DNA of 32,402 nt from Acidimicrobiales bacterium (GCA_024644005.1 JAHELU010000023.1:1-32402), one strand, 5' to 3'. Positions 1,390 through 32,402 are shown, counted from the first letter of the stretch. Made by a program: numbers and translations. The notes: generated by a model from the sequence alone, not told the origin.

Positions 1390-1791
1390 TCAGGGGCCAC
1401 CATCCGAGCGCGGCCCGTCCAGCTCGTCGAGCCCCCATCGAGCCTCCAGCTCTCCGATGGCCCGGTCGATCGCCTGCGCCCTCGTCGATCGGCGTCGAAG
1501 GGGCGCCGGCGGGCGGGGGGCGCTCGGTGCTGCCGCCCCGAGGTCGTCGAGGATGGGCTGCAGCCCGGCTTGGGCCGACGCGTCGCTGAGGATCGCGTCG
1601 GCGACGATGCCGGTGAGGTGGTGCAGCTCGGCCGGTCTGAGGCTCATCGACGTCGAGCGCGACACGTCGATGAGCGGGTCCGGCCGGCGGACGTCGACTG
1701 GGTAGCGCTGCAACTCGCGCGACAGGACCTGCAGCCCGAGCGCCACGAAGCCGATCGCCACCACCACCAGCACCACCAGGGGCCCGCTCAT
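1390..1791 (-). CDS. Small membrane-anchored protein, last gene of the MoxR/DUF58 operon
   Basis: A 133-residue protein of unknown function. The N-terminus (PLVVLVVVAIGFVALGLQVL) is a single hydrophobic segment, probably a membrane anchor or uncleaved signal. The rest is a soluble tail with an Ala/Pro-rich stretch and a short predicted helix (RAQAIDRAIGELEARWGLD) near the C-terminus. The ATG overlaps the stop of the upstream DUF4129-like gene in an ATGA arrangement (1788-1791), which fixes the start and implies translational coupling. As the fourth gene after MoxR, DUF58 and DUF4129-like genes, it is likely an accessory membrane component of that system. I do not recognise a family. Confidence 0.75.
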   Translation of the reverse strand: MSGPLVVLVVVAIGFVALGLQVLSRELQRYPVDVRRPDPLIDVSRSTSMSLRPAELHHLTGIVADAILSDASAQAGLQPILDDLGAAAPSAPRPPAPLRRRSTRAQAIDRAIGELEARWGLDELDGPRSDGGP

Positions 1792-3110
1792 GGATCGTCT
1801 GGCCGGTCGGGCGGCCCGTCGAGCTGCCCCCTGTGCGGGTCCCGGTCCCGCGTCGAGCGATCGACCTCGGTCAGGAGGTCCCCGATGGCGGCGAGGGCAC
1901 TGCGGCGCATCGCCTCGTCGACGTTGCCATCGTCGAAGCGGGCCCGTTCGAACAGCGTGGTCAGTGTGGCCATGGCCGGCATCGCCGAACCGAGCGTGGA
2001 CATCGTCCTGGTCAGGAACTCCCGCTCGGTCTCGGACGAGCCTCTGGTCAACCGGAGCTCGCCGAGCCGGAGCTCGATGTTGGCGTAGCCGAATCGGATG
2101 GCCCGACCGGGATCCTGCTCGGTCTCGATGTCGAGCCGGAGGCCGTGCAACAGGCCGGCCAGATCGTCCTCGTCCACCTCGACGATCTCGTCGTCCTGCT
2201 CGGCCCGTCCCGGCGTGGCCAGACCGAACGACTCGTCCTCGTCGTCGGGGTCGATGTCGTCGAGCTCGAACACGGCCTCCGGCCGGCGAAGGGCGAGGTA
2301 CAGCACCCCGAGCGCGATGGTGATCACCAGGATCACAACGAGCGTCAGTCCCCGCTGGACCGTTTCCGGATCGACGGCGGTCGGGCCGGCAGTGGTCGTC
2401 GTGGTGGCGACGGTGGTCGTCGGCGACTCGAGCGTGGAGTCGGGACCGGTCCGGAGACCGGTCCTGGCCTGCGCGCCCATCACCACTACGATCACGACGA
2501 TGGTGGTCAGCATCGCTGCGAGTGCCGCCCTGACGATCGGCCCGGCCAGGTCGTTCCGTTGCTCGAGGCGGTCGCCCAGCGGCCGGGCGAAGAGGGGCAG
2601 GCCCGCCCCGGCCAGCCCGATCGGGACCCAGGCTGCACCGGAGGGCGGGCGCTCGGCGAGCTGCCACGTGCCCACGACGATGGCTGCGACGGTGGCGGCG
2701 GCCGCCCCCGATCGAAGGAGGTATCCCCCGACGAGGCCGGGCCCGAACCGGCTCGGCCGGCGAGCGTCGAGTGAGAACCGGACGGTTTCGTTGACAGCCA
2801 GCAGGGTGAGCGCCAATGCGACCAGTTCCACCAGACCGGGCGGACCGGTGACCGCGAGCCCGACGAACCCGAGCAGCACCAGCCCGAGATACAGCCCGAG
2901 CGAGTTGCCGGTGACGACGGTGGCCAGCACCAACGTCGCCACCACCAGGGCCCAGGTCCAGCCGCGGCTCGAATCGGTCACTCCGGCGGCGAAGGACCCG
3001 ACCAGGACCCAGCAGACGCCGAGCAGACCGACCAGTGCGGGAAGGACCGACAGTCGCCGAGCGACCCGGGACGTCGACGCCTCATCGGTGTAGACCGAGC
3101 TCACGCCCAC
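1788..3110 (-). CDS. Polytopic membrane protein with C-terminal DUF4129-like domain
   Basis: About 440 residues. The N-terminal half has many hydrophobic segments (roughly residues 18-45, 50-110, 130-180 and 190-215), then a Thr/Val-rich extracellular-type loop (TTTVATTTTTAG), another transmembrane helix (TLVVILVITIALGVLYLAL), and an acidic cytoplasmic linker (DDIDPDDEDES). The last ~110 residues (DPGRAIRFGYANIELRLGELRLTRGSSETEREFL ... NVDEAMRRSALAAIGDL) resemble the DUF4129 domain that commonly accompanies MoxR and DUF58 proteins. The start is uncertain: GTG at 3110 and GTG at 3104 are both possible. It lies 31 nt after the DUF58 gene and overlaps the next gene by 4 nt. Its role is probably in the membrane complex served by the MoxR ATPase; the biochemical activity is unknown. 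Confidence 0.8.
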   Translation of the reverse strand: MGVSSVYTDEASTSRVARRLSVLPALVGLLGVCWVLVGSFAAGVTDSSRGWTWALVVATLVLATVVTGNSLGLYLGLVLLGFVGLAVTGPPGLVELVALALTLLAVNETVRFSLDARRPSRFGPGLVGGYLLRSGAAAATVAAIVVGTWQLAERPPSGAAWVPIGLAGAGLPLFARPLGDRLEQRNDLAGPIVRAALAAMLTTIVVIVVVMGAQARTGLRTGPDSTLESPTTTVATTTTTAGPTAVDPETVQRGLTLVVILVITIALGVLYLALRRPEAVFELDDIDPDDEDESFGLATPGRAEQDDEIVEVDEDDLAGLLHGLRLDIETEQDPGRAIRFGYANIELRLGELRLTRGSSETEREFLTRTMSTLGSAMPAMATLTTLFERARFDDGNVDEAMRRSALAAIGDLLTEVDRSTRDRDPHRGQLDGPPDRPDDP

Positions 3111-3141
3111 CCACCGGCACGACCGTTGCGGGGAGCAATCG

Positions 3142-4398
3142 TCACGACGCCGGCCGCCGTCTCGCCAGTGCGGCCACGGGCAGCTCCAACGGTTGATCGG
3201 CCCGCCACCGCATCACCGGAACCCCGTGCCGCAACAGCTGCTGCCGCCGCCGGGCCAGCACGACCCGCCACAGCCGGGCGGCCAGCTCCGCCGCTTCGCC
3301 CGGCGCATCGCCGAGGTGATCCTCCACACTGCACTCCAGCACCGCCACCTCGATCCCGTGCAGCCGCAACTCGATCGGCAGGAGCGCCATGTCGGGATCG
3401 GTCAAGCCGGTCAGCATCACCACCATCGTCCCGGCATCCAGGTCGTGGAGCGGCAGCTGCTCCAGCCTCGGGGCGCGCAGTCCCGCCTCGACCTGCGATT
3501 CGAGCAGGGCGTCCAACAGGCGGGCCTTCTGGAGCCGACCCTGCCGAGGTCGGAACCAGCGGATGTGCCGGCCGACATCGAGCAGGCCCACCCGGTCGTG
3601 GGCATCGAGATTGCTGTCGGCCAAGCCCATCGCCGCCCGCACCGCCCGCTGGACCAGGCGATTCCCCTCCGGACCGAGGTCCCGGAACGTATCGAGCAGG
3701 AAGACCAGGTCGCCCGACTGGTCGGGGTGGCGGACCGTCACCCACCGCTCACGTCGTCTCGCCGAGACCCGCCAGTTGACCGACCGCATGGTGTCACCGA
3801 CCCTGAACGGCCTGACCTCGGCGAAGTCCGAGCCCTCCCCGTGACGGCGGGACCGGTGATCGCCCACCCTGGCCCGCAGCCGGGCCGGGACCACGACCGA
3901 GCGACGGTTGCCATCCCTCGGATGGACCCGAATGGCCAGGTTCGGGTGATGGACGGCCGAAGCGACGAAGAGGCCGAACGGCCCGCGGGCGATGGTCTCG
4001 ACCCGACCGGGGACGGCAACCCCCCACCTGGTCAGCTCCATCGGGAACCGGACGACGGCCTTGCTCCCTGCGGGGATCGACACGACGGCGTGACGGATCC
4101 CGCTGACGGGTTCCAGATCGGGCGGCACCTCGATGCCGACCTGCACCCACGGCACCGAGGTGACCGACTGGACGGTGATGACGAGATCGATCCGGTCGCC
4201 CTCGACGGCCCGGGTCGGCCCGTCGACCGAGACTCGCAGCTCAGGCCGACGATGGGTGAGAGCGGCGGTGGCGGCGAGGAGGATCGCCGGACAGGTGGCG
4301 ATGGCGAGCAGCGGACGACCGGCGACGACCGCGAAGAGCAGCACCGCCACCCCGCCGAGCAGGAGGATGAGGAACCGGGGACTGGTCTGGTGGTTCAC
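3142..4398 (-). CDS. DUF58 domain-containing protein (VWA-like MoxR partner)
   Basis: A 418-residue protein. The N-terminus has two hydrophobic segments (FLILLLGGVAVLLFAVVAG and LLAIATCPAILLAATAAL), followed by a beta-rich region and the DUF58 core: EVRPFRVGDTMRSVNWRVSARR is the hallmark motif, and DLVFLLDTFRDLGPEGN begins a VWA-like fold with a degenerate metal site. DUF58 proteins are regularly encoded next to MoxR AAA+ ATPases and are thought to act as partners in assembly or activation of membrane or secreted complexes. The GTG start at 4398 overlaps the MoxR stop (GTGA, 4395-4398), so the pair is translationally coupled. Longer upstream starts would run deep into the MoxR gene and are rejected. 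Confidence 0.9.
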   Translation of the reverse strand: MNHQTSPRFLILLLGGVAVLLFAVVAGRPLLAIATCPAILLAATAALTHRRPELRVSVDGPTRAVEGDRIDLVITVQSVTSVPWVQVGIEVPPDLEPVSGIRHAVVSIPAGSKAVVRFPMELTRWGVAVPGRVETIARGPFGLFVASAVHHPNLAIRVHPRDGNRRSVVVPARLRARVGDHRSRRHGEGSDFAEVRPFRVGDTMRSVNWRVSARRRERWVTVRHPDQSGDLVFLLDTFRDLGPEGNRLVQRAVRAAMGLADSNLDAHDRVGLLDVGRHIRWFRPRQGRLQKARLLDALLESQVEAGLRAPRLEQLPLHDLDAGTMVVMLTGLTDPDMALLPIELRLHGIEVAVLECSVEDHLGDAPGEAAELAARLWRVVLARRRQQLLRHGVPVMRWRADQPLELPVAALARRRPAS

Positions 4399-5498
4399 CC
4401 GGTGCCGACGCCGTCGGCCGGGAAGTCCTCCCGGTCCACCGCGATCTCCACATCCCGATCCGTCAGGGTGGTCGGGGTCGGCACCGAGGCCAGGCACTCG
4501 TCGATGACGTCGGTCTCCCTGACCCCCCGGACCCAGGCCTCGGTCCGCAGGACCAGCCGGTGGGCCAGGACCGCCCCGGCGAGCACCTTCACGTCGTTCG
4601 GCGTTGCGAACGTCCGCCCCTCCAGCGCTGCCTTGGCCCTGGCGCTCCGCAACAGCGCCAGCCCTCCTCGTGGACTCGACCCGATCTCGAGCGACGGGTG
4701 AGCCCTTGTGGCCTCGACGATCGAGACGACGTAGTCGATCACGTCCTGGCTGGCGGTGATCCGCTCGACCGCGGCCTGCATGGCTGCCACCTGCGCCGGT
4801 GACGCCACGGGCTGCAGATCGGGCTGCTCGGCACCCCGCTCGACACGTCGTCGCAGCAGCTCCCGCTCGTCGTCCGGTGACGGATAGCCGACGCCGACCC
4901 GCAGCAGGAAGCGGTCGAGCTGGGCCTCGGGGAGGGGATAGGTGCCCTCGGTCTCGATCGGGTTCTGGGTCGCCAGCAGGAAGAACGGCCGAGGGAGCGG
5001 ATGCGAGGTGCCGTCGACCGTGATCTGCCGCTCCTCCATGGCTTCCAGGGCTGCAGCCTGGGTCTTCGACGGGCTGCGGTTGATCTCGTCACCGAGCACC
5101 AGGTTGGCGAACAGCGGACCGGGGGCGAAGGTCGGCCGGTCGTCGAACCCCGGGACCACCGAGCCGGTGAGGTCGGAGGGGATCAGGTCCGGCGTGAATT
5201 GGATGCGGGAGAACGTCAAGCCCGTCACCGTGGCCAGAGACCGGGCGATCAGGGTCTTGGCCACGCCGGGCACGTCCTCGATCAGCACGTGGCCGTCGGC
5301 CAGCAGACCGGTCACGATCAGCTCCAGGACCGCCCGCTTGCCCACGACGGCCCGTTCGATCTCCGTGACGATGTCGGCCGACAGGGCGGCTACGCTCGAG
5401 GCGGCATCGCTCGAGGCAGCATCGCTCGAGGGCTCGGGTTCCGGGGGAACCGAGCTCGTGATCGACGGGTCGATCGGTTCGACATGCTGACCGCTCAC
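4395..5498 (-). CDS. MoxR family AAA+ ATPase
   Basis: A 367-residue ATPase using the GTG at 5498. It has the MoxR form of Walker A (HVLIEDVPGVAKTLIARSLA), Walker B (LVLGDEINRSPSKTQAA), the sensor-type ATQNPIETEGTYPLPEAQLDRFL block and a C-terminal AAA lid. MoxR ATPases act as chaperones that insert cofactors or remodel partner complexes, usually with DUF58/VWA proteins such as the one encoded immediately downstream. Start choice: a GTG at 5537 would add 13 residues with little sense, whereas the GTG at 5498 sits 8 nt after TACCGT, the same leaderless arrangement seen at several genes here. The low-complexity Ala/Ser N-terminus (AASSDAASSVAA) comes from a 15-bp tandem repeat. First gene of a four-gene operon. 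Confidence 0.93.
   Translation of the reverse strand: MSGQHVEPIDPSITSSVPPEPEPSSDAASSDAASSVAALSADIVTEIERAVVGKRAVLELIVTGLLADGHVLIEDVPGVAKTLIARSLATVTGLTFSRIQFTPDLIPSDLTGSVVPGFDDRPTFAPGPLFANLVLGDEINRSPSKTQAAALEAMEERQITVDGTSHPLPRPFFLLATQNPIETEGTYPLPEAQLDRFLLRVGVGYPSPDDERELLRRRVERGAEQPDLQPVASPAQVAAMQAAVERITASQDVIDYVVSIVEATRAHPSLEIGSSPRGGLALLRSARAKAALEGRTFATPNDVKVLAGAVLAHRLVLRTEAWVRGVRETDVIDECLASVPTPTTLTDRDVEIAVDREDFPADGVGTG
5391..5435 (-). repeat. 15-bp tandem repeat in the 5' part of the MoxR gene
   Basis: Nearly three copies of a 15-bp unit lie at 5391-5405, 5406-5420 and 5421-5435, sharing the core CGCTCGAGG on the plus strand. They encode the repeated AASSD/AASSV segment of the disordered MoxR N-terminus. 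Because the unit is a multiple of three, copy-number change would not break the frame. Confidence 0.7.
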
Positions 5499-5506
5499 TC
5501 GACCCA

Positions 5507-5512
5507 ACGGTA
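5507..5512 (-). promoter_or_regulatory. -10 element of a predicted leaderless promoter for the MoxR operon
   Basis: TACCGT on the minus strand, 8 nt before the GTG at 5498. The spacing is that expected between a -10 box and the transcription start, so the transcript would begin at the start codon. No ribosome binding site is evident upstream of this GTG. Confidence 0.5.
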
Positions 5513-5552
5513 ACGCACCCACCGAATCCGGGCACACCCCGTCACGACGGCG

Positions 5553-23585: not shown

Positions 23586-23804
23586 GTGTCCCAGAATCGC
23601 TACCGTTGTGTTACCTGCGGCAACATGACAAGGTTCGAGGTAGTGGTTACGAGGCGCGTTCGGGAGACCCACAGCATCACGGTGGATGGAGCCGCCGGCC
23701 CGCGCCGATCCGAGGTTATCGCCGAAACCGTCGACGAGATTCTGTGCAGCTGGTGCGGAGATGGTGATGCGGTCAACGAGCTAGGGCAGACAGGAGCCGG
23801 GTGA
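23586..23804 (+). CDS. Small zinc-ribbon protein
   Basis: 72 residues. Two CxxC pairs, YRCVTCGNM near the N-terminus and ILCSWCGDGD near the C-terminus, frame a beta-rich middle (TRFEVVVTRRVRETHSITVDG), as in treble-clef or zinc-ribbon folds. It would bind one Zn and probably contact nucleic acid or a protein partner. GTG at 23586 matches the leaderless spacing. Its stop overlaps the next start (GTGA or TGATG, 23801-23804 region), so it is translationally coupled to the giant coiled-coil NYN protein and is likely its functional partner. No exact family could be named. Confidence 0.8.
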   Translation: MSQNRYRCVTCGNMTRFEVVVTRRVRETHSITVDGAAGPRRSEVIAETVDEILCSWCGDGDAVNELGQTGAG

Positions 23805-26800
23805 TGGTGGCGGAGTCTCTACAGGCGGCATGCGAACTGGCGTTCGTCGTTGCCCGCGAGGATGCGGAGTCCGATCAGGCGACCGAACCGCCAGCCGGCA
23901 TGCGGAGCTTCCTCTATGTCTCGGACCTGCCGCGCAGGGCCATCGCTGCAGCTCAGCAGGCGATCGAGGACGACTCGGGCTTCCGGTCCAGGGTCGCATC
24001 GAGGGCCAGCGAGGAGATCGTCGGTCGGGCCGGCTACCTCTGGCTCCACCGACCATCCGGATGGGCCCAGGAGTTCGAGCGGCTCACCGCCGACGACGAC
24101 TACTACGACGACCACTACGACGACGACCACTACGACGACGACCACGTCGCCGACGAGGACCGGGCCCAGGATCCGGTCGATGAGTCGTTGGACGACCGTT
24201 CGCCGGTCGAGTTGGTCAACGCCCAGCCACCGGAGCCGGACTACAGCTTCGACCCCGGCGAGACCTTCAGCCCCGCCAGTCCACCGATCGCCGAGGCACC
24301 GATGGCCACCGTCCGCCCCATCGGCGGTCCCGAAGCGGGACCGGAGCCGCCGCCCTCCTCGTTCGAGCTCGCCTCGTTCGCCGGAGCGGCGGCCGCAGAT
24401 CCCGCTGGCTACGACGTGGCGGCTTCCGGGGCCGCATCGCCAGCGGACGCCGAGGGAACGCTGATAGAGGCTTCGGAGCTGGATTTCGAGGCCGATGCGT
24501 TGGAGAACGAGCTCTCCAGCCTGCGGGGGCTCGTCGATCGGCTGGCCGGCGAGCGCGAGCTCGTCCTGTCCAGCGCTCCGCCGTCCGGGGACGATCCCGA
24601 ATACCCGGCCGTCGACGGCCGCGAGCTCGAGAGTGAGATCATGGCCCTGGAGAGCGATCTCGAAGCCGTCCGCCACGAGCTGTCGCTCGCCAAGGACGAT
24701 CTCGCCGCAGCCCGCCACGACCGTGAAGAGGCCCAGCGGTTGCACTCGGAGACGCTGAAGCGCCAGGTCGAGCTGGAGAAGGAGCTCGCCGCCGTCCGTG
24801 AGCAGCGGGTCCAGGTGGAGAACCAGGCGTCCGAGGCCCAGGTATCCGTCATCAGCCTGGAGGACAAGCTGCGGCGAACCGAGTCGCTGTTCCAGGAGGC
24901 GGAGCGCGAGCGGAACGTCATCAAGTCCCAGCTGGAGACGATGACCTCCGAGCGGAACCAGATCCGGGAGGACCGCATCGCCATCAAGGCGGAGCGCGAC
25001 GAGCTCCACTCCCGTGTCGTCGAGGTCGAGGAGAAGACCGGTGGTGTCGATGTCGGCGAGCTGACGGCGGCCAACAAGTCACTCACCCACGAGCTCGATG
25101 CGACGAGCCGTGAGCTGGCACGGATGATCGGCCAGGCGGAGAGCTTCGAGGAGCAGATCAGGACGACGACCGCCCTCGCAGACAGCCTCAAGACCGAGAA
25201 GGTCGAGCTCACGTCTCGCCTGGCCGACACCGAGCTCGCCCTCGAGACGACCATAACGCAGCACGACGCCCTCAAGATCGACAGCGAACGGCTGGCGGCC
25301 GAGGTCGGGATGCTCCGGGCCGAGCGAGATGGGTTGCAGACCCAGCTGACGGAGCTCCAGGTCAGCCTGGCCGACGTCCTCAACGAGCAGGCCGAGATCC
25401 GGCAGCGCCACGACAACGACCGCCAGGCCCTGAACGAGCTGCGGGTCGAGCGCGATGTGCTCATGGCCAGGATGAACGACTTCGAGCAGTCGGACCGTGA
25501 CTACGAGACCAAGATCCGGTCGCTCGTCCAGGAGCGGGACGATCTCCTGTCGGCCCGCGACGATCTGATCTCGGAGCGCGGTCAGCTGCGGGGCGAGGCG
25601 GCGGCGATCGCCGCCGACCGCGAGCAGATGTTGGAGAAGCTGCGCACGGTCGAGGCCAAGATCGCTCCGCTGGAGACCGAGCTGCAGGCCGAGCGCCGCC
25701 AGCGCGAGGAGCTGGCCAACCGGTTGCTCGAGCTCGACGACATCGCAGACCGCAACGCCGCCGAACTGGCGGCCGTCAACGAGGAGCGCGACGCGATGGC
25801 CGTCGCCCTCGAGGAGCTTCGAGCCGAGCGGGTCGAGGTGGCCGAGATCACGCTCGAGCGGGACAACCTCGCAGCACAGTTGGATCAGAGCGAGCGGCGC
25901 AGCCAGGACGAGGCCGACCGCAGCCGCGAGAAGCTGGCCGAGATGTCCGAGCAGCTGGCAGCGGGGGAGACCGCCAGGACGGGCCTGGAGCGGCGGCTCG
26001 CCGAGGCCCTCGCCGACGTCGACACGATGCGGACCGACTTCGATGCTGCCAACAAGGAGGTGGCTCGCCTCTCGGTGGCAGAGGAGAGCGCCACCTCGGC
26101 CGCAGCCGAGGCGGAGGCGGCGGTCGAGGCCAAGATCACGGAGCTGGCTGCGCTGCGGGAGGCCCGGGCGGCGGCCGAGGCTGAGACCGCCGAGGTCCGA
26201 GTGGCCCTGGAGCTCAAGGACTCCGAGATGCGGGCCGCCCACGAGCGGCAGGCGGCGGCGGAGGCCGAGCTGGCCGAGACCCGCGCCGCGCTCGAAGCGA
26301 GGACCGCCGAGATCGAAGCGGCGCTCGAGGCCAAGACAGCGGAGGTCGAGGCCAAGGAGGCGGAGATCCGCACCAAGGACGACGAGCTCCAGGCCACTTC
26401 GTCGGAGCTCGCCACCAAGGACGCCGCGCTGGCCGCCAGGACATCGGAGCTCGAGGACAAAGAGGCCGAGCTGGTGGCCAAGACGGAGGCGCTCGCCTCA
26501 CGGGACGCCGAGCTCGAGACGAAGACGGCCGAGCTGGAAGCCAAGGAGGCGGAGCTCGAGAACAAGACCACGGCGCTGGAGTCGCGCGACGCCGAGCTCG
26601 AGGCGAGGACGGCCGAGCTGGAGGCCAAGGACATCGAGCTCGGCACCAAGACGGCGGCGCTGGAGTCGACCGACGTCGAGCTGGAGGCGAAGACCGGCGA
26701 GCTGGAGGCCAAGGAGGAAGAGCTCGCGACGACGACCGGCCAGCTGGAGGCCAAGGAGGACGAGCTCGGGTCCAAGACGGCCGCACTCGAGTCGAAAGAA

Positions 26801-28081
26801 GCCGAGCTGGAGGCGAAGACCGACGAGCTGGAGGCCAAGGAGGCGGAGCTCGAGATCAAGACCGTGGCCCTCGAGTCGAAGCAGGCCGAGCTCGAGGCCA
26901 AGACCGCGGCGCTGGAAGCCACGGAGGCAGAGCTCGGAGCGAAGGACGCCGAGCTGGAGGCGGCCCGTGAAGCGGCCGCTCTGAGCGAGGTGACGGATCG
27001 GGAGGCTGCGCCGTCCGTGCTCGACGTCGACGCTGGAGCGCCGATCGACGGCGATCGCGATGACGCCACGGAGCCGGCCGCCGAGGCGACCGGGGAGCCG
27101 GAAGGTGCCGAGCCGGAGGCAGCCGACCCGGACTCCACGACGCTCGTCGGTCCGGCCGCGATCACCTCGCTCAACGGTGTCGAGCTCGACGAGCCGGACG
27201 CCGGCTCGTCCGACTTCGACTGGCCACCCCCGGCCGGCGAGGACGACGACGACAGCCGGTCGGTGCTGATCGACGCCGGAATCGAACCGCTGCCGCCCAG
27301 CGACGAGGACGACCTCGACGAGGTCAGCGAGCTGATCGCCAAGACGGTCAGCGAGTTCGGCACCGCTGGATCCCTCATCGATCTCGATGCCGACGTGCCG
27401 ATTGGAGACGTCGACGCCGACCTCGACCTCCGCCGACTCGCCGGCGATGGCGATGGCGATGGCGACCGAGATTCCGATGCATCGGAGCCGGGCCACATCC
27501 TGGGCAAGGACACCACCGAGGTGCTGCCCCGAGTCGCCCAGACACCCCCCAGCATCTTCGGGCCGACCGCCGAGGACACATCGCTGCTCGAGCCCTCCGC
27601 CCCCGGCGGCCGACCGTCGCCGGTCAGCACGCGGCGGGCCATCGAGATCCCGGCCGACATCCTGGACGATGAGGTGGCGGTCGCCCAGTTCGTGGTCTCC
27701 TCGCCGGATGTCGTGCTGCTGGTCGACGGTGACTCGGTGGCCAGGCTCGGTTGGCCGAGCTTACCCGTGGCCCAACAGCGCGATGCGCTGGTGACCTATC
27801 TGGCAGATCTGTCCGCCAGCAGCGGTGCCGCCCCCGATGTCGTGTTCGACGGCCGGATCGGCGACGACGACTCCCTCCCGGCGTCGCGAGCCGTGAGGAT
27901 CCGGCTCAGCACGCCCCCGACCGAACCGGCGGCGGCGCTCGACGAACTGGTGGATGCCTATCCCGAGCAGTGGCCGATCGCCCTCGTCACCGATGACAGC
28001 GAGCTGGCCGACTCGGCGAGCGAGCGAGGCGCCGCGGTCCTGAACAACGGTCAGCTGCTCGATCTGTTCATCGCCCAATAG
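23804..28081 (+). CDS. Giant coiled-coil protein with C-terminal NYN (PIN-like) nuclease domain
   Basis: 1425 residues. Residues ~1-90 are a small alpha-helical domain (RSFLYVSDLPRRAIAAAQQAIEDDSGFRSRV ... GRAGYLWLHRPSGW). An acidic Tyr/His-rich repeat follows at ~97-114, then a disordered linker, a coiled coil of about 840 residues (~221-1060, no proline breaks, with 28-residue repeats at the end), an acidic linker (~1062-1279), and a C-terminal NYN/YacP-like domain (~1280-1425). The last shows VVLLVDGDSVARLGWP (D1308, D1310), DVVFDG (D1349) and IALVTDDSELADSASERGA, the acidic residues expected of a PIN-like RNase. ATG at 23804 is 8 nt after AGGAG; GTG at 23801 is an alternative. Probably a long tether that positions an RNase. 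The gene overlaps mftF by 14 bp at its 3' end. Confidence 0.9.
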   Translation: MVAESLQAACELAFVVAREDAESDQATEPPAGMRSFLYVSDLPRRAIAAAQQAIEDDSGFRSRVASRASEEIVGRAGYLWLHRPSGWAQEFERLTADDDYYDDHYDDDHYDDDHVADEDRAQDPVDESLDDRSPVELVNAQPPEPDYSFDPGETFSPASPPIAEAPMATVRPIGGPEAGPEPPPSSFELASFAGAAAADPAGYDVAASGAASPADAEGTLIEASELDFEADALENELSSLRGLVDRLAGERELVLSSAPPSGDDPEYPAVDGRELESEIMALESDLEAVRHELSLAKDDLAAARHDREEAQRLHSETLKRQVELEKELAAVREQRVQVENQASEAQVSVISLEDKLRRTESLFQEAERERNVIKSQLETMTSERNQIREDRIAIKAERDELHSRVVEVEEKTGGVDVGELTAANKSLTHELDATSRELARMIGQAESFEEQIRTTTALADSLKTEKVELTSRLADTELALETTITQHDALKIDSERLAAEVGMLRAERDGLQTQLTELQVSLADVLNEQAEIRQRHDNDRQALNELRVERDVLMARMNDFEQSDRDYETKIRSLVQERDDLLSARDDLISERGQLRGEAAAIAADREQMLEKLRTVEAKIAPLETELQAERRQREELANRLLELDDIADRNAAELAAVNEERDAMAVALEELRAERVEVAEITLERDNLAAQLDQSERRSQDEADRSREKLAEMSEQLAAGETARTGLERRLAEALADVDTMRTDFDAANKEVARLSVAEESATSAAAEAEAAVEAKITELAALREARAAAEAETAEVRVALELKDSEMRAAHERQAAAEAELAETRAALEARTAEIEAALEAKTAEVEAKEAEIRTKDDELQATSSELATKDAALAARTSELEDKEAELVAKTEALASRDAELETKTAELEAKEAELENKTTALESRDAELEARTAELEAKDIELGTKTAALESTDVELEAKTGELEAKEEELATTTGQLEAKEDELGSKTAALESKEAELEAKTDELEAKEAELEIKTVALESKQAELEAKTAALEATEAELGAKDAELEAAREAAALSEVTDREAAPSVLDVDAGAPIDGDRDDATEPAAEATGEPEGAEPEAADPDSTTLVGPAAITSLNGVELDEPDAGSSDFDWPPPAGEDDDDSRSVLIDAGIEPLPPSDEDDLDEVSELIAKTVSEFGTAGSLIDLDADVPIGDVDADLDLRRLAGDGDGDGDRDSDASEPGHILGKDTTEVLPRVAQTPPSIFGPTAEDTSLLEPSAPGGRPSPVSTRRAIEIPADILDDEVAVAQFVVSSPDVVLLVDGDSVARLGWPSLPVAQQRDALVTYLADLSASSGAAPDVVFDGRIGDDDSLPASRAVRIRLSTPPTEPAAALDELVDAYPEQWPIALVTDDSELADSASERGAAVLNNGQLLDLFIAQ
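24092..24145 (+). repeat. Acidic Tyr/His repeat (YDDDH) in the NYN protein
   Basis: A 15-bp unit coding for YDDDH is repeated about three times, giving DDDYYDDHYDDDHYDDDH (residues ~97-114). Alternating Asp and His suggest metal or polycation binding. The unit length keeps the frame. Confidence 0.8.
26498..26959 (+). repeat. 84-bp (28-residue) tandem repeats in the coiled coil of the NYN protein
   Basis: Five full units start at 26498, 26582, 26666, 26792 and 26876, with a half unit (two heptads) at 26750-26791. Each encodes four heptads of the type SRDAELE/AKTAELE/AKEAELE/xKTAALE. The steady 7-residue period is that of a continuous coiled coil. Confidence 0.88.
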
Positions 28082-29588
28082 CGGCCCTGAGGCGGGCCAG
28101 CGCGCCCTCGCCAGGGGTCGGCCACGATACCAGATCTGGCGCGAGCGCAGTCGCCGATCGGCAGGTCACTGCGCCGTGCCAGACGCCGGCGGAGTACGAG
28201 AGATCGTCGGCGACGCCGAGCCCCAGGTCGACGAGCGCCGGTCCCGGCCGACGGGGACCGTCGAGGAGGCGGCGGGCGAAGGCGGCGACGAAGGCGATGG
28301 CGATCCGCCGCCGCAGTCGGGGGACCACGACGGCCGTTGCCACGGCGATCGGGCTCCACGCCCTGGCCAGCGCGGTGAGGGCCGAGAGACCGCCGTACCA
28401 GTGACCGCGCGCGGTCAGCAGGACGGCCTCGACCGTGGCGTCCGGCAACGGCTCGATCTTGGGTCGCAACGCCAGACCGGTGCCGATGGCCGTCGCCAGG
28501 GCCGAGACGGGCCGGCCCGCCAGTGCCAGCGCCAGCACCACCACCGTCCACGGCGAGATCCTGCACGGCGAGACCGCCGTACCGTGGCGCTCGGCCAGGG
28601 GCCCGGCTGCGGAGCCGTAGGAGAGCCGCTGCGCCAGCATGGCCGGGAGTGTCCGTCGGGGCGGATGGCTGACCTCGACGTCGGGTAGGTAGCGGATCGA
28701 GCCGTGCTCGGCCAGCCGCCAGACCAGGTCGACGTCCTCGCCATAGCGGAGTCCGGGATCGAACCCGCCGACTTCGGCGATGGCCGCCCGCCGGGCGACC
28801 AGGCAGGCGGTCGGCACGTACGGCACCGCCCGACCGGGGCCGACCAGCGATTCGACCGGCCCGAGGTCGAGCGGAGATCGGCGACGATCGTAGCGGCCGA
28901 CGAGCTGGTCGACGGGAGCGGAGCGGACCCGGGGGGCGACGGCCACCACGTCCGGGTCGTCGAGAAGATCGACCAGCCGTTGCAGGTCGGCTCGGGAGAC
29001 CTCGACGCCGGCATCGACGAAGGCAACCGCATCGGTCTCGATGGTCGCCAGCGCCTCCTGGCGGGCCGTGCCGGGTCCGCCGGCCGATCGGCGTCGACGC
29101 ACCGATACGTCCGGATCGTCGATCTCGATCGGCGGATCGGACCCGTCATCGACCACCACGATCCTGGCGGTGGCCTCCGGCTGCTCCGAGGTCGGCGCAG
29201 CGACCGAGAGGTGATCGAGCGTGTGCTGCAGCCCGCTCCGGTCGTCCTTGACCGGTATCACGACCGTCATCGTTCTCTGCGGACCGGCACCCGTGACCGC
29301 TGGCGTGTCGTCCAAGGGGTCGGGCGCAGCCCCGTTGGCGTGGGCCGGCCAACGGAGATGGGCCATGCCGTTGCGAACCAGCCGTCGAGCCAGCAGCTCG
29401 TGCTTCGGGTCGTCGCCCACGGTCCCGCCGCCGAACCATGCTCGAACCACCGCCGCCCCTGCGTCGCTCAGCCGCAGGATGGTGAGCGGGGCGCCACCGA
29501 TCAGGATCCGGCCGGCGGCAACCGTTCTCAGATCCACCGCCGGCTCCACCCGGCAGCCGGGAGGCATCGATCGGAGGGCCGGGGTCAT
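28068..29588 (-). CDS. mftF: Mycofactocin biosynthesis glycosyltransferase MftF
   Basis: 506 residues. MftF adds beta-1,4-linked glucose units to the mycofactocin precursor PMFT. The N-terminal ~90 residues (AAGRILIGGAPLTILRLSDAGAAVVRAWFGG ... LLARRLVRNGMAHLRWPA) are the family's leading domain. A GT2 (GT-A fold) domain follows from ~107 (TMTVVIPVKDDRSGLQHTLDHL; VVVDDGSDPP at ~145; AVAFVDAGVEVSRADL; GGFDPGLRYGEDVDLVWRL). The C-terminal hydrophobic region and GVWHGAVTCRSATALAPDLVSW are diagnostic for MftF. The ATG overlaps the VWA stop (ATGA, 29585-29588). Last gene of the operon here; its 3' end overlaps the convergent NYN gene by 14 bp. Confidence 0.93.
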   Translation of the reverse strand: MTPALRSMPPGCRVEPAVDLRTVAAGRILIGGAPLTILRLSDAGAAVVRAWFGGGTVGDDPKHELLARRLVRNGMAHLRWPAHANGAAPDPLDDTPAVTGAGPQRTMTVVIPVKDDRSGLQHTLDHLSVAAPTSEQPEATARIVVVDDGSDPPIEIDDPDVSVRRRRSAGGPGTARQEALATIETDAVAFVDAGVEVSRADLQRLVDLLDDPDVVAVAPRVRSAPVDQLVGRYDRRRSPLDLGPVESLVGPGRAVPYVPTACLVARRAAIAEVGGFDPGLRYGEDVDLVWRLAEHGSIRYLPDVEVSHPPRRTLPAMLAQRLSYGSAAGPLAERHGTAVSPCRISPWTVVVLALALAGRPVSALATAIGTGLALRPKIEPLPDATVEAVLLTARGHWYGGLSALTALARAWSPIAVATAVVVPRLRRRIAIAFVAAFARRLLDGPRRPGPALVDLGLGVADDLSYSAGVWHGAVTCRSATALAPDLVSWPTPGEGALARLRAAIGR

Positions 29589-30502
29589 TGCACGAGCGCT
29601 TGCAGGGCGTCGAGGACGGAGAAGGGGCCACCGACCTCGGCCACCCTGGCCCCGCAGCCGGCGGCGAGGGCCCTGGCGTGCTGGGGCTCGTCCTCTGGGG
29701 CCAGGATCGTCAGCTCGTCGAGGCCACGGGCGACCGGGACCGGATCGGCACCGGTGGTGACCTCGGCGTCGGACAGGAGGATCGTGAGCTTGCGAGCCGC
29801 CTGCGATCGGTCGAGCTGCAGCTTGGCCGCCCGTAGGGCCAGCGCCACGTCGGTGGTGCCGTGACCCCTGAGCGCCAGGACTTCGGCGACCACCGACTCA
29901 GGTGACTTCTGCTCGTCCAGCTCCTTGATCGACACCACCTTGTCCCCGAATGCGAGCACGGCGAACTGGGTCGGGGCCCGCCAGCTGCAGACGGCCGCCG
30001 CCAGCGCTGCGCTCGCCAGCCGTTCGCCGCTCATCGACCCGGACCGGTCGACCAGTAGGCAGATGGCGGTCCTCGGCTTCTGCCAGGTGGTCGTGAACAG
30101 CTCGTCGACGGCCGGTGGCCGGCGCTCAGCCCTGGCCGTCGTCAGCCGGTCGAGGCTGTCGTCGAAGTCGATGTCGCCCCCGTCGAGGGTTGCCGTGGAT
30201 CGAACCAACTTCCCCACGCCTCGGGACCGGGCACGGCCCGTCCTGGTCAGGTCGAGCACCAATCGGCCGGCCAACCGCCTCGACAGGCGGGCCAGCTCTG
30301 CGTCCGTGGCCTGAGCCATCTGGGCCAGCAGCTCCAGCGCCTCGTCAGGATCGTCGGCGAGCAGCTCCTCGAACGCCTCGGTGTCGAGCTGGCCCAGTTG
30401 CGGCGAGACGTCGGCGAAGGCCTCGTTCCGATCGAGGTCTCGTCTGCTGACCGTCCGGCGGCGCTCGTCGGCCAGGGCCTTCTCGGCGTCCTCGCCGGTC
30501 AG
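29585..30502 (-). CDS. VWA domain protein (CoxE-like) in the mycofactocin operon, apparent CTG start
   Basis: 305 residues with the proposed start. The N-terminal ~130 residues are helical and charged (GEDAEKALADERRRTVSRRDLDRNEAFADVSPQLGQLDTEAFEELL). A VWA domain follows with an intact MIDAS: D152-R-S154-G-S156 (VDRSGSMSGERL), GTTD at ~215-218 and LLSDAEVTTG (D245). Such VWA proteins partner MoxR-type ATPases, and one is fused to MftE immediately upstream. Start: after the in-frame stop at 30560 there is no ATG, GTG or TTG until an ATG at 30319, which would cut the conserved-looking N-terminus. A CTG at 30502 overlaps the upstream stop as CTGA (30499-30502), matching the 4-nt overlaps on both sides in this operon. 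The ATG at 30319 (244 residues) is the alternative. Confidence 0.8.
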   Translation of the reverse strand: MTGEDAEKALADERRRTVSRRDLDRNEAFADVSPQLGQLDTEAFEELLADDPDEALELLAQMAQATDAELARLSRRLAGRLVLDLTRTGRARSRGVGKLVRSTATLDGGDIDFDDSLDRLTTARAERRPPAVDELFTTTWQKPRTAICLLVDRSGSMSGERLASAALAAAVCSWRAPTQFAVLAFGDKVVSIKELDEQKSPESVVAEVLALRGHGTTDVALALRAAKLQLDRSQAARKLTILLSDAEVTTGADPVPVARGLDELTILAPEDEPQHARALAAGCGARVAEVGGPFSVLDALQALVQ

Positions 30503-32253
30503 GATCCGATCGTCCGGATCGGAGCCGCCGCCAGGCGGCTGGGCGCTTTTCCCGCTGCGTCACCGGATCCGTCCTCGGCGGGCTCGTCGTCCGGGGCGCC
30601 GACGATCGAGGTCCACAGCTCGGTGACCACCGACTCCGGCGTGCTGTTCGTCGACTCGTGGAGCCGGATCCGGCCCGACAGCGCGGCGAGGGCGCAGTCG
30701 AGCCCGATTGCGAAATCGGTCGGTCGGGCCTGGCGCAGCGCGCCGAGGTCCTCGGAGAGCAGCAGCAGGTCGACTGCGCCCCGCACCGACGAGCCCACCC
30801 GGACCTCGGGATGGCTCCTCGTCGCCCGGATCACCTCGACCACCTTCTCGATGTGGTCACGCGGCAGGCTGGAGGCCATGGCGGCGATGTCGACCTCCTC
30901 CTCGGCGCTCTGATACCCCATCGCCACCCGGCAGACGCGGTCGTAGATGGCGCCCGATATCCGGGCGGTCCCGACGGCGTCGAACGGGTTCATCGCCGCG
31001 ACGAACCGGAACCGCGCATCGGCCTCGATCCGACCGAGCCTGGGCACGGTGAGCTCGCCCTCCGACATGACGGTGACCAGGAGGTTCAGGGTCTCCTCGG
31101 GGACCCGGTTGATCTCCTCGAGGTAGAGGATCTTGCCGTCCCGAAGGGCCCTGATCAGCGGCCCATCGACCCAGACCGTCTCCGAATATCCGGCCTCCAT
31201 CACCTGAGCCGGGTCGAAGTGACCGGCCAGGCGGGCCGGGGTCAGCTCGGCGTTGCCCTCGACGAACTCCATCTGCTGATCACCGGCGTGCGAGATGGCC
31301 CGCAGCAGCGTCGACTTGCCGGTGCCCGGTGGGCCCTCGAGCAACAGGTGCCGGCCGGCCATCAGCGAGGCGACCACCAGCTCTGCCTCCCGGGACCGGC
31401 CGACGACCTCCCGGCGAAGCTTGTCCAGCGTCTCCGGCCCGTAGCCGTCGGTTTCCACCACCGCCTCAGCGTAGTCAGTGACCGAGGGGCTGCCCCATTC
31501 CGGTCGTCGACCGCGTGAGCGGTCGCCCAGCAGTGCCACGGTCCGCTCGACCAGGGAGGAGAGCAGCGATTCACCCTCGCTGGCGGTGGCCTCGGTGGGA
31601 TCCCCGAGCACCCCGTTGGGGGACACGCTGCCGACGCCGGCCTCGACCAGGACCGGCATCAGCTCGGTCAGCGGATCGGTGCAGCCCGGCACCGCCAGCC
31701 CGGCCCGGACCCCGTCCGGTTCGACGTGGAGCATCAGCGAGGTCTCGGTCCTGCCCGCGTGGGCGTCGATCGCCCGATCGCCGTTCGGCGGCCACCACGG
31801 GAAGAGGTGCATGACCTCGTGTCCCTCGGCCACGAGCTGTCTGACCGCATCGGTGACCGGCGCCCGGTTGCCGCCGTGGCCCGAGAGCATCACCACGCGG
31901 TCGAAGGACGAGCCGGCGGAGCGGACGAGCTCGACCACGACATGGCGGAGCGCCTCGGCGCCGATGGACAGCGTCCCGGCGAACATCCGGTGCTCCCCGG
32001 ATGAGCCGTAGGGGAGGGGTGGGGCCACCAGCGCATCGCCGAGCGCGACGGCGACCCGTTGGGCCCACGCCAGGGCCAGCTCCGTGTCGGTGTGCAACGG
32101 GAGGTGGGGACCGTGCTGCTCGGTGGCGCCGAGGGGGACCAGCAGCGTCGTTGCGGTGGTTGCCGCCACCTCCTCGGTGGTCATCGGCCCGAGCAGGCCG
32201 GCCAACGGCGCGGTGGTCGGGCGGGTCGGTCTGCGGTCGGCCGGCCTCGTCAC
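30499..32253 (-). CDS. mftE: MftE-MoxR fusion: mycofactocin creatininase-family peptidase joined to an AAA+ ATPase
   Basis: 584 residues in one frame. Residues 1-~243 are MftE, the creatininase-type peptidase that trims the cyclised MftA C-terminal dipeptide: VPLGATEQHGPHLPLHTDT gives metal ligands E45, H47 and D56, LSGHGGNR gives H126, AGRTETS gives E170, and SVSPNGVLGDPT is the family signature. Residues ~272-550 are a MoxR-type AAA+ ATPase: Walker A GPPGTGKST (307-315), Walker B ILYLEEINR (375-383) with Glu-Glu instead of Asp-Glu, and FVAAMNPFDAVGTARISGAIYDRVCR. The linker (DRSRGRRPEWGSPSVTDYAEAVVETDG) is short. GTG at 32253 overlaps the upstream stop (GTGA). A fusion of these two is not the usual mft arrangement; an internal GTG near residue 265 could also yield a free ATPase. 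Confidence 0.92.
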   Translation of the reverse strand: MTRPADRRPTRPTTAPLAGLLGPMTTEEVAATTATTLLVPLGATEQHGPHLPLHTDTELALAWAQRVAVALGDALVAPPLPYGSSGEHRMFAGTLSIGAEALRHVVVELVRSAGSSFDRVVMLSGHGGNRAPVTDAVRQLVAEGHEVMHLFPWWPPNGDRAIDAHAGRTETSLMLHVEPDGVRAGLAVPGCTDPLTELMPVLVEAGVGSVSPNGVLGDPTEATASEGESLLSSLVERTVALLGDRSRGRRPEWGSPSVTDYAEAVVETDGYGPETLDKLRREVVGRSREAELVVASLMAGRHLLLEGPPGTGKSTLLRAISHAGDQQMEFVEGNAELTPARLAGHFDPAQVMEAGYSETVWVDGPLIRALRDGKILYLEEINRVPEETLNLLVTVMSEGELTVPRLGRIEADARFRFVAAMNPFDAVGTARISGAIYDRVCRVAMGYQSAEEEVDIAAMASSLPRDHIEKVVEVIRATRSHPEVRVGSSVRGAVDLLLLSEDLGALRQARPTDFAIGLDCALAALSGRIRLHESTNSTPESVVTELWTSIVGAPDDEPAEDGSGDAAGKAPSRLAAAPIRTIGS

Positions 32254-32402
32254 CGGGTGGTGACCGGGTCGTCGTCGGCCGAGTCCGTCGGCCGGTCCTC
32301 GGCCGGCTCGAGGTAGCCCCACTCCCGCAGCTGCTCGATCGCGGCCTCGGCTCCGGCCCGGGGGTCGACCTCGAGCACCCGGGCCGCCGCCCGCTCCTGA
32401 CC
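32250..32402 (-). CDS. C-terminal fragment of the gene upstream of mftE (unassigned)
   Basis: Only 50 residues before the stop at 32250 are inside the window: RVLEVDPRAGAEAAIEQLREWGYLEPAEDRPTD and a short acidic tail. A helix-turn-helix-like end of this type is seen in PqqD/MftB-like peptide-binding chaperones and in many winged-helix proteins, so it could be MftB or another mycofactocin gene, but the fragment is too short to decide. Its stop overlaps the GTG of the MftE-MoxR gene by 4 nt, which places it in the same operon. The rest lies beyond the right edge. Confidence 0.6.
   Translation of the reverse strand, partial: GQERAAARVLEVDPRAGAEAAIEQLREWGYLEPAEDRPTDSADDDPVTTR

What the first reader, a model, noticed from the sequence alone, without database searches (positions are those of the whole stretch)
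30499..32253. Mycofactocin peptidase MftE fused to a MoxR-type AAA+ ATPase
One uninterrupted frame carries a complete MftE (all five expected metal ligands and the SPNGVLGDPT signature) followed by a complete AAA+ ATPase with Walker A and B. In the common mycofactocin operon MftE is a stand-alone creatininase-family protein. In PQQ-dependent methanol dehydrogenase clusters, MoxR and VWA proteins help assemble the cofactor-containing enzyme. A fusion here suggests that precursor trimming is physically linked to an ATP-driven loading or remodelling step for mycofactocin or its client dehydrogenase. The motifs are seen; the functional link is inference.
Basis: partly seen in the sequence, partly recalled or inferred. 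Interest (0 to 1): 0.8.

Follow-up and report, generated by a model that had tools for sequence, protein, structure and literature searches.

The report
Frameshifted helper ATPase for mycofactocin enzymes
The reported MftE–ATPase fusion is real in this one metagenome-assembled genome but unique to it; the ATPase belongs to a widespread two-part helper that travels with mycofactocin and its alcohol dehydrogenases, and its two parts are predicted to be joined when the ribosome slips back one base at a conserved signal.

Summary
In detail: one minus-strand frame (30499-32253) encodes MftE followed by a MoxR-type AAA+ ATPase inside a mycofactocin cluster (mftA/B/C lie on contig C299, joined by a 38-bp end overlap). 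The fusion is a singleton: in all 13 other loci where mftE abuts this ATPase gene, MftE ends in a stop codon. The nearest relatives have longer junctions, so a deletion probably fused the genes.

The larger result lies beside it. The ATPase and the downstream VWA gene form a conserved module, usually directly behind a TIGR03989 NDMA-dependent alcohol dehydrogenase (104 of 146 loci) and almost only in genomes with MftC (27 of 29 strong hits among 396 Actinomycetota). The VWA gene lacks a start codon. In 101 of 114 non-redundant pairs the ATPase's C-terminal Gly-Lys is written G_GGA_AAA, a -1 slippery heptamer, followed mostly after 5-7 nt by a hairpin; that heptamer occurs in frame at 2 of 347,990 other codon positions. 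Pseudonocardia-type homologues keep the heptamer with reversed, dnaX-like polarity. I predict programmed -1 frameshifting that makes AAA plus AAA-VWA (here 62 and 94 kDa), a NorQD/CbbQO-like remodeller of mycofactocin-dependent dehydrogenases. Frameshifting and function are inferred, not measured.

The parts
30499..32253 (-). MftE::AAA+ fusion frame, GTG start, 584 aa (61.9 kDa)
31519..32202 (-). MftE (creatininase-family peptidase) part
   Evidence: TIGR03964 257.7 bits, above its cut-off
30529..31458 (-). MoxR/NorQ-type AAA+ part with Walker A GPPGTGKS and Walker B ...EE
   Evidence: AAA_5; invariant columns shared with 16 homologues; nearest solved folds of a homologue are NorQ and CbbQ
30547..30553 (-). 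predicted -1 slippery heptamer G_GGA_AAA, followed by G
30523..30540 (-). predicted stimulatory hairpin AGCCGCC-TGGC-GGCGGCT, 6 nt after the heptamer
29585..30547 (-). VWA (CoxE-like, MIDAS DRSGS) frame read in -1 after the shift; first ATG/GTG/TTG of this frame only at 30319; frameshift product MftE-AAA-VWA 889 aa (94.5 kDa)
28068..29588 (-). mftF glycosyltransferase, start overlapping the VWA stop
   Evidence: TIGR03965 303.9 bits, cut-off 280
32250..32402 (-). C-terminus of an electron-transfer-flavoprotein beta-like gene continuing on contig C299 (38-bp end overlap)

Best explanation
The ATPase in the reported frame is one half of an AAA+/VWA remodelling machine that accompanies mycofactocin. 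Ribosomes translating the AAA gene slip back one base at G_GGA_AAA, helped by a hairpin 6 nt downstream, and a fraction continue into the VWA frame, giving AAA alone plus AAA-VWA. As in NorQ/NorD, where one VWA protein engages a NorQ hexamer, I infer a mixed ring in which shift efficiency sets how many subunits carry a VWA arm. I infer that it remodels TIGR03989 NDMA-dependent alcohol dehydrogenases, nicotinoproteins thought to hold NAD(H) tightly and pass electrons to mycofactocin, for example to load metal or cofactor or to reopen a closed enzyme. In the window lineage the dehydrogenase gene that lay between mftE and AAA was probably lost, and a deletion then fused mftE in frame to AAA, so the products would be MftE-AAA and MftE-AAA-VWA. 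Shown by sequence: the fusion, the module, its linkage, the signal and its conservation. Inferred: that frameshifting happens (about 0.9), the ring composition, the client (about 0.6) and the chemistry.
For: Signal: of 135 non-redundant AAA/VWA pairs, 114 stand in -1 relation; 101 carry in-frame G_GGA_AAA, 9 GGGGGAA, 2 C_CCA_AAA, 1 A_AAA_AAA. GGA and AAA are minority codons there (12.8% of Gly, 20.7% of Lys), and in-frame G_GGA_AAA occurs at 2 of 347,990 codon positions in other genes. The first start codon in the VWA frame lies a median 39 codons after the shift site although the protein upstream of it is conserved. A stem scoring at least as five G-C pairs starts 4-9 nt downstream in 85% against 13.5% of shuffles, with two-sided pair changes. 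Seven in-frame fused homologues keep G_GGA_AAA and meet a stop after 1-5 codons in the -1 frame; other lineages simply fuse AAA and VWA. Linkage: MftC co-occurrence; TIGR03989-type dehydrogenase (three tested, 513-563 bits) directly upstream in 104 of 146 loci. Fold: CbbQ/NorQ Z 24, VWA domains Z about 19, with a disordered linker near the shift site. History: AAA and ADH trees.
Against: No protein, ribosome profiling or reporter data. Mycobacteriaceae-like family f57 and one acidimicrobial family (f22) have MftC without this AAA, so the module is not needed for mycofactocin in general. In the window's own branch the adjacent dehydrogenase is gone, and the only TIGR03989 protein over the cut-off in this 83%-complete assembly belongs to a clade never paired with AAA. 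In 42 of 146 loci no dehydrogenase is directly upstream. Nine pairs have GGGGGAA, a weaker-looking site. 12 of 114 pairs have a possible start codon within 20 codons of the shift site.
Confidence: 0.72

Rival explanations
1. The fusion itself is the functional novelty: MftE trimming is physically coupled to the ATPase, which hands the released precursor or mycofactocin on to a client enzyme.
For: One frame with no stop and all conserved AAA columns kept; AAA lies directly after mftE in a large part of the family; most creatininase entries in the PDB hold six or multiples of six chains, which would match a AAA hexamer (inference).
Against: Seen in no other genome; ADH-AAA-VWA units also stand away from mftE; a single metagenome assembly.
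Confidence: 0.12
2. The apparent fusion is a sequencing or assembly artefact; the genome really has separate mftE and AAA genes.
For: Metagenome-type assembly, 314 contigs, 83% complete; every relative has a stop; one of the other two frames of the linker has stops, and an in-frame GTG GTG could start AAA.
Against: The junction is much shorter than in the nearest relatives (60 nt against 141-222), so a one-base error does not explain it; both parts keep their conserved residues.
Confidence: 0.2
3. The AAA/VWA pair is a CoxD/CoxE-like maturation system for the molybdenum hydroxylase encoded next to mftC.
For: VWA matches PF05762 VWA_CoxE; a CoxL-like large subunit lies next to mftC on C299.
Against: That subunit was recognised in only a few of the neighbourhoods, whereas the alcohol dehydrogenase is directly upstream in 104 of 146.
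Confidence: 0.08
4. VWA is made by translational coupling from a non-standard start or by transcriptional slippage, not by ribosomal frameshifting.
For: Overlapping genes often couple; the CTG/ATC near the AAA stop could be imagined as a start.
Against: Those codons are not conserved (CTC, GTC, GCA in relatives), while heptamer and hairpin are; reversed-polarity homologues exist; a run of four A is short for transcriptional slippage (general knowledge).
Confidence: 0.08

Closest known systems
NorQ/NorD (PMC9976466, PMC13036017) and CbbQ/CbbO MoxR AAA+/VWA pairs
   Same: MoxR-class AAA+ with a VWA partner encoded beside it; the model of a fused homologue matches CbbQ and NorQ at Z 24; known to remodel a dedicated enzyme or insert metal
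   Different: sequence identity about 22%; Walker B EE instead of DE; the neighbour is a mycofactocin-linked alcohol dehydrogenase; a frameshift signal or gene fusion joins the two parts
Programmed frameshifting in chlD / magnesium chelatase (PMC3711429, PMC9227772, PMC5009743)
   Same: -1 shift yields a short AAA subunit and a long subunit from one gene; other species carry a plain fusion
   Different: A_AAA_AAR sites there, G_GGA_AAA here; another AAA family and another pathway; the papers read do not mention MoxR/VWA or mycofactocin
dnaX frameshifting (established knowledge)
   Same: in Pseudonocardia-type homologues the full product is in frame and the -1 shift stops at once
   Different: unrelated protein; most members of this family have the opposite polarity
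Canonical mycofactocin cluster mftA-F (PMC3023750)
   Same: mftA, B, C, E, F and both OYE genes present
   Different: extra AAA/VWA module; no MftD over its cut-off in this incomplete genome; MftE fused
CoxD/CoxE of aerobic CO dehydrogenase (PMC3471820, PMC4240915)
   Same: AAA plus VWA maturation pair; VWA matches VWA_CoxE
   Different: linked to alcohol dehydrogenase and mft genes, not to cox structural genes

Membership tests
MftE (TIGR03964) | score over the curated cut-off of 172 bits | tested here: met
   257.7 bits
MftE (TIGR03964) | encoded with mftA, mftB, mftC | tested here: met
   all three over cut-off on contig C299, joined by a 38-bp end overlap; the join itself is inferred
MftE (TIGR03964) | stand-alone protein | tested here: not met
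   fused here; stand-alone in every relative examined; this does not touch the identity of the domain
MoxR-class AAA+ with VWA partner | AAA+ core with Walker A/B and a VWA protein encoded directly downstream | tested here: met
   VWA downstream in 134 of 146 loci
MoxR-class AAA+ with VWA partner | fold closest to NorQ/CbbQ | tested here: met
   model of fused homologue L234: CbbQ Z 24.0, NorQ Z 23.9
MoxR-class AAA+ with VWA partner | remodels or activates a specific enzyme | not testable with these tools
   needs biochemistry; client proposed from gene order only
Programmed -1 ribosomal frameshifting | X_XXY_YYZ heptamer in frame where both frames are open | tested here: met
   window GGGAAAA; 104 of 114 pairs with a canonical heptamer
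Programmed -1 ribosomal frameshifting | stem starting about 5-8 nt downstream | tested here: met
   window 6 nt; 85% within 4-9 nt against 13.5% in shuffles
Programmed -1 ribosomal frameshifting | shift shown in vivo or in vitro | not testable with these tools
   no expression data
CoxD/CoxE maturation pair | encoded with CO dehydrogenase structural genes | tested here: not met
   one CoxL-like gene near mftC in the window genome, absent from most AAA neighbourhoods
Magnesium/cobalt chelatase I/D subunits | chelatase model over cut-off | tested here: not met
   BchD-ChlD 35.9 bits against 499.55; BchI-ChlI 16.3 against 466.95

The most novel reading that the evidence does not exclude
A programmed -1 frameshift, conserved across many families of Actinomycetota, sets the ratio of AAA to AAA-VWA subunits in a dedicated activator ring for mycofactocin-dependent nicotinoprotein alcohol dehydrogenases; in the window organism the same ring also carries MftE peptidase on every subunit.
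Probability: 0.35. Interest if true: 0.85.

Novelty: new variant of a known kind. Interest (0 to 1): 0.72.

Why it matters
Mycofactocin-dependent alcohol dehydrogenases appear to hold their NAD(H) and hand electrons to a peptide-derived cofactor; how they are assembled or kept active is not described in the papers searched. A dedicated AAA+/VWA partner would name the missing component and make the question testable in cultured Pseudonocardia, Geodermatophilus or Amycolatopsis. A conserved frameshift site in a MoxR/VWA family, outside the chelatases where such a shift was known, would show how a cell fixes the unequal subunit ratio of a remodelling ring, and it means VWA genes of this family are probably annotated with truncated N-termini.

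Tried and rejected
(1) MftE-AAA fusion as a conserved architecture: rejected, stops in all other adjacent pairs. (2) AAA/VWA as a general requirement for mycofactocin: rejected, families f57 (Mycobacteriaceae-like) and f22 lack it. (3) CoxDE-type role for the neighbouring molybdenum hydroxylase: disfavoured by gene order. (4) Chelatase I/D identity: far below cut-offs. (5) CTG or ATC as the VWA start: not conserved. (6) Rfam: only two chance-level hits in the cluster region, no known frameshift element. (7) Literature: no paper in the held library was found that links mycofactocin to MoxR or VWA, or MoxR/VWA to frameshifting (Haft 2011 checked); subscription journals and preprints were not searched. 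(8) PDB sequence search with the VWA gave only chance hits.

Full report
1. Observation. The minus strand of 30499-32253 is one uninterrupted frame of 584 codons. Its first part is MftE (TIGR03964, 257.7 bits against a cut-off of 172); its second part is an AAA+ ATPase (AAA_5, 98 bits). It starts at a GTG that overlaps the stop of the preceding gene. The window is the whole of contig C136 of a 4.46-Mb, 83%-complete assembly in 314 contigs. Its last 38 bases equal the first 38 of contig C299, and the gene cut at the window's end (EtfB-like) continues there. C299 carries mftA, mftB and mftC (TIGR03969, 03967 and 03962 over cut-off), both mycofactocin OYE genes, a CoxL-like molybdenum hydroxylase subunit and, by my reading of the translations, electron-transfer-flavoprotein genes. 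The join is an inference from a short overlap, supported by the split gene.

2. The fusion is a singleton. In 13 other loci where mftE lies directly before this AAA, the MftE frame ends in a stop first. The nearest AAA relative (G002, 88% identical) has 222 nt between the aligned domains, two other relatives in the same genus 153 and 141, the window 60. A deletion that removed the stop is the simplest account; a one-base error does not explain the short junction, though an assembly error cannot be excluded. In seven relatives, one in the same genus, a TIGR03989-type alcohol dehydrogenase gene lies between mftE and AAA; these seven dehydrogenases form one clade (100/97), while their AAAs intermingle with those lying directly after mftE. 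So the dehydrogenase was probably present first and lost repeatedly, which brought mftE next to AAA.

3. The AAA/VWA module belongs with mycofactocin and its alcohol dehydrogenases. In 396 Actinomycetota genomes AAA (E < 1e-40) is in 32, MftC in 53, both in 27 (Fisher p = 2.7e-22). Of the 29 AAA genomes above 250 bits, 27 have MftC, and the two exceptions are 87-89% complete. In 61 relatives 32 of 33 agree (p = 4.8e-15). Of 26 genomes reached through named loci, 24 have MftC, among them all 15 that are named strains rather than metagenome assemblies. Relatedness of the genomes inflates these p-values. Directly upstream of AAA, 104 of 146 loci have a dehydrogenase of the TIGR03989 type (NDMA-dependent; three tested at 513-563 bits, cut-off 440), both inside mft clusters and as separate ADH-AAA-VWA units. 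TIGR03989 is one of the families Haft tied to mycofactocin (PMC3023750). The converse does not hold: families f57 (Mycobacteriaceae-like; the name is my inference) and f22 have MftC without this AAA.

4. Frameshift signal. The VWA frame in the window has no ATG, GTG or TTG until 30319, yet about 60 conserved residues precede it; the same is true of most relatives. At the end of AAA a conserved Gly-Lys is written G_GGA_AAA, followed by G (window 30547-30553). From there the -1 frame is open into VWA. Of 135 non-redundant AAA/VWA pairs, 114 are in -1 relation: 101 with GGGAAAA, 9 GGGGGAA, 2 CCCAAAA, 1 AAAAAAA, 1 with GAAAAAA. In other genes of the same loci in-frame G_GGA_AAA occurs at 2 of 347,990 codon positions. 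A hairpin follows: in 85% a stem scoring at least as five G-C pairs starts 4-9 nt downstream, mostly 6, against 13.5% in dinucleotide shuffles. Stem positions show two-sided changes (position 1: G-C 60, C-G 16, A-T 5; position 4: C-G 63, G-C 17, A-T 2), and at one fixed geometry all five pairs form in 38.7% against 18.3% (maximum 26.1%) when arms are re-dealt; a second geometry (3-nt loop) showed nothing. The sequences are related, so these counts are descriptive. The window has AGCCGCC-TGGC-GGCGGCT, 6 nt after the heptamer. Spacing and motif agree with published -1 signals (PMC4066793; G_GGA_AAG is shift-prone in E. coli, PMC5009743).

5. Independent support. In seven homologues, including cultured Pseudonocardia, AAA and VWA are in one frame but the heptamer is kept, and the -1 frame stops after 1-5 codons: the dnaX arrangement. 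In family f45 (Rubrobacter-like; the name is my inference) and some others the two are simply fused. Several routes thus lead to an AAA-VWA chain, two of them also to AAA alone. The signal is in cultured isolates as well as metagenome assemblies. A model of a naturally fused homologue (L234, mean pLDDT 79.5, pTM 0.45) shows a AAA domain, a disordered stretch at 285-323 near the shift site, and a VWA domain; the AAA matches CbbQ and NorQ (Z 24.0 and 23.9), the VWA matches VWA domains at Z about 19.

6. How it probably works. Shown: the gene arrangement, its conservation and the signal. Inferred: ribosomes make mostly AAA and a fraction AAA-VWA; they co-assemble; [quoted passage not shown] The client is most likely the TIGR03989 dehydrogenase; whether the work is zinc or NAD loading, reopening of the closed enzyme, or docking of mycofactocin is open. 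In the window the same scheme would give MftE-AAA (61.9 kDa) and MftE-AAA-VWA (889 aa, 94.5 kDa). The only TIGR03989 protein over the cut-off in this genome belongs to a clade never found paired with AAA, so its client here is uncertain.

7. Novelty. Frameshifting that yields a short and a long AAA product is known for chlD/magnesium chelatase (PMC3711429, PMC9227772) and MoxR/VWA pairs are known remodellers; I found no description of this family, of its link to mycofactocin, or of its frameshift, within a library that lacks many subscription papers. I therefore call it a new variant of a known kind.

8. Limits. Gene calls outside the tools' family searches come from my own codon-usage caller and tblastn. 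Sequence relatedness was reduced only by removing near-identical pairs. No expression data were available.

Noticed in passing
window 23801-28081 (+): A 1426-aa Glu/Ala-rich, apparently coiled-coil protein converges on mftF; a convergent long gene (about 730-1540 aa) lies downstream of mftF in many relatives.
   Followed up: no
L064:11104-13356 (-) (contig C299): A CoxL/glyceraldehyde-dehydrogenase-like molybdenum hydroxylase large subunit lies directly next to mftC; similar genes near the mft cluster in L036 and L038.
   Followed up: partly
genome G000: No MftD (TIGR03966) over the cut-off (best 291.6 against 470.85 bits) in this 83%-complete assembly.
   Followed up: partly
L123:3773-5360 (-): MftB and MftC appear as one 529-aa frame in genome G373.
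   Followed up: no
L126 and L127: Two genomes of family f45 carry a tandem of a single AAA and an AAA-VWA fusion of this family with no dehydrogenase directly upstream.
   Followed up: no
L107, L109, L182, L187, L193: Two TIGR03989-type dehydrogenase genes in tandem upstream of AAA-VWA, from different branches of the dehydrogenase tree in L107 and L109.
   Followed up: no
L200, L205, L206, L212, L225, L244: Records titled Bifidobacterium breve, Labilithrix luteola, Bacillota or Acidobacteriota carry this module at 52-61% identity; the titles look doubtful.
   Followed up: no
window 1788-5537 (-): A second, distant MoxR-like AAA gene (29% identical) at 4395-5537 with neighbours of 419 and 441 aa, an ordinary-looking MoxR operon.
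   Followed up: no
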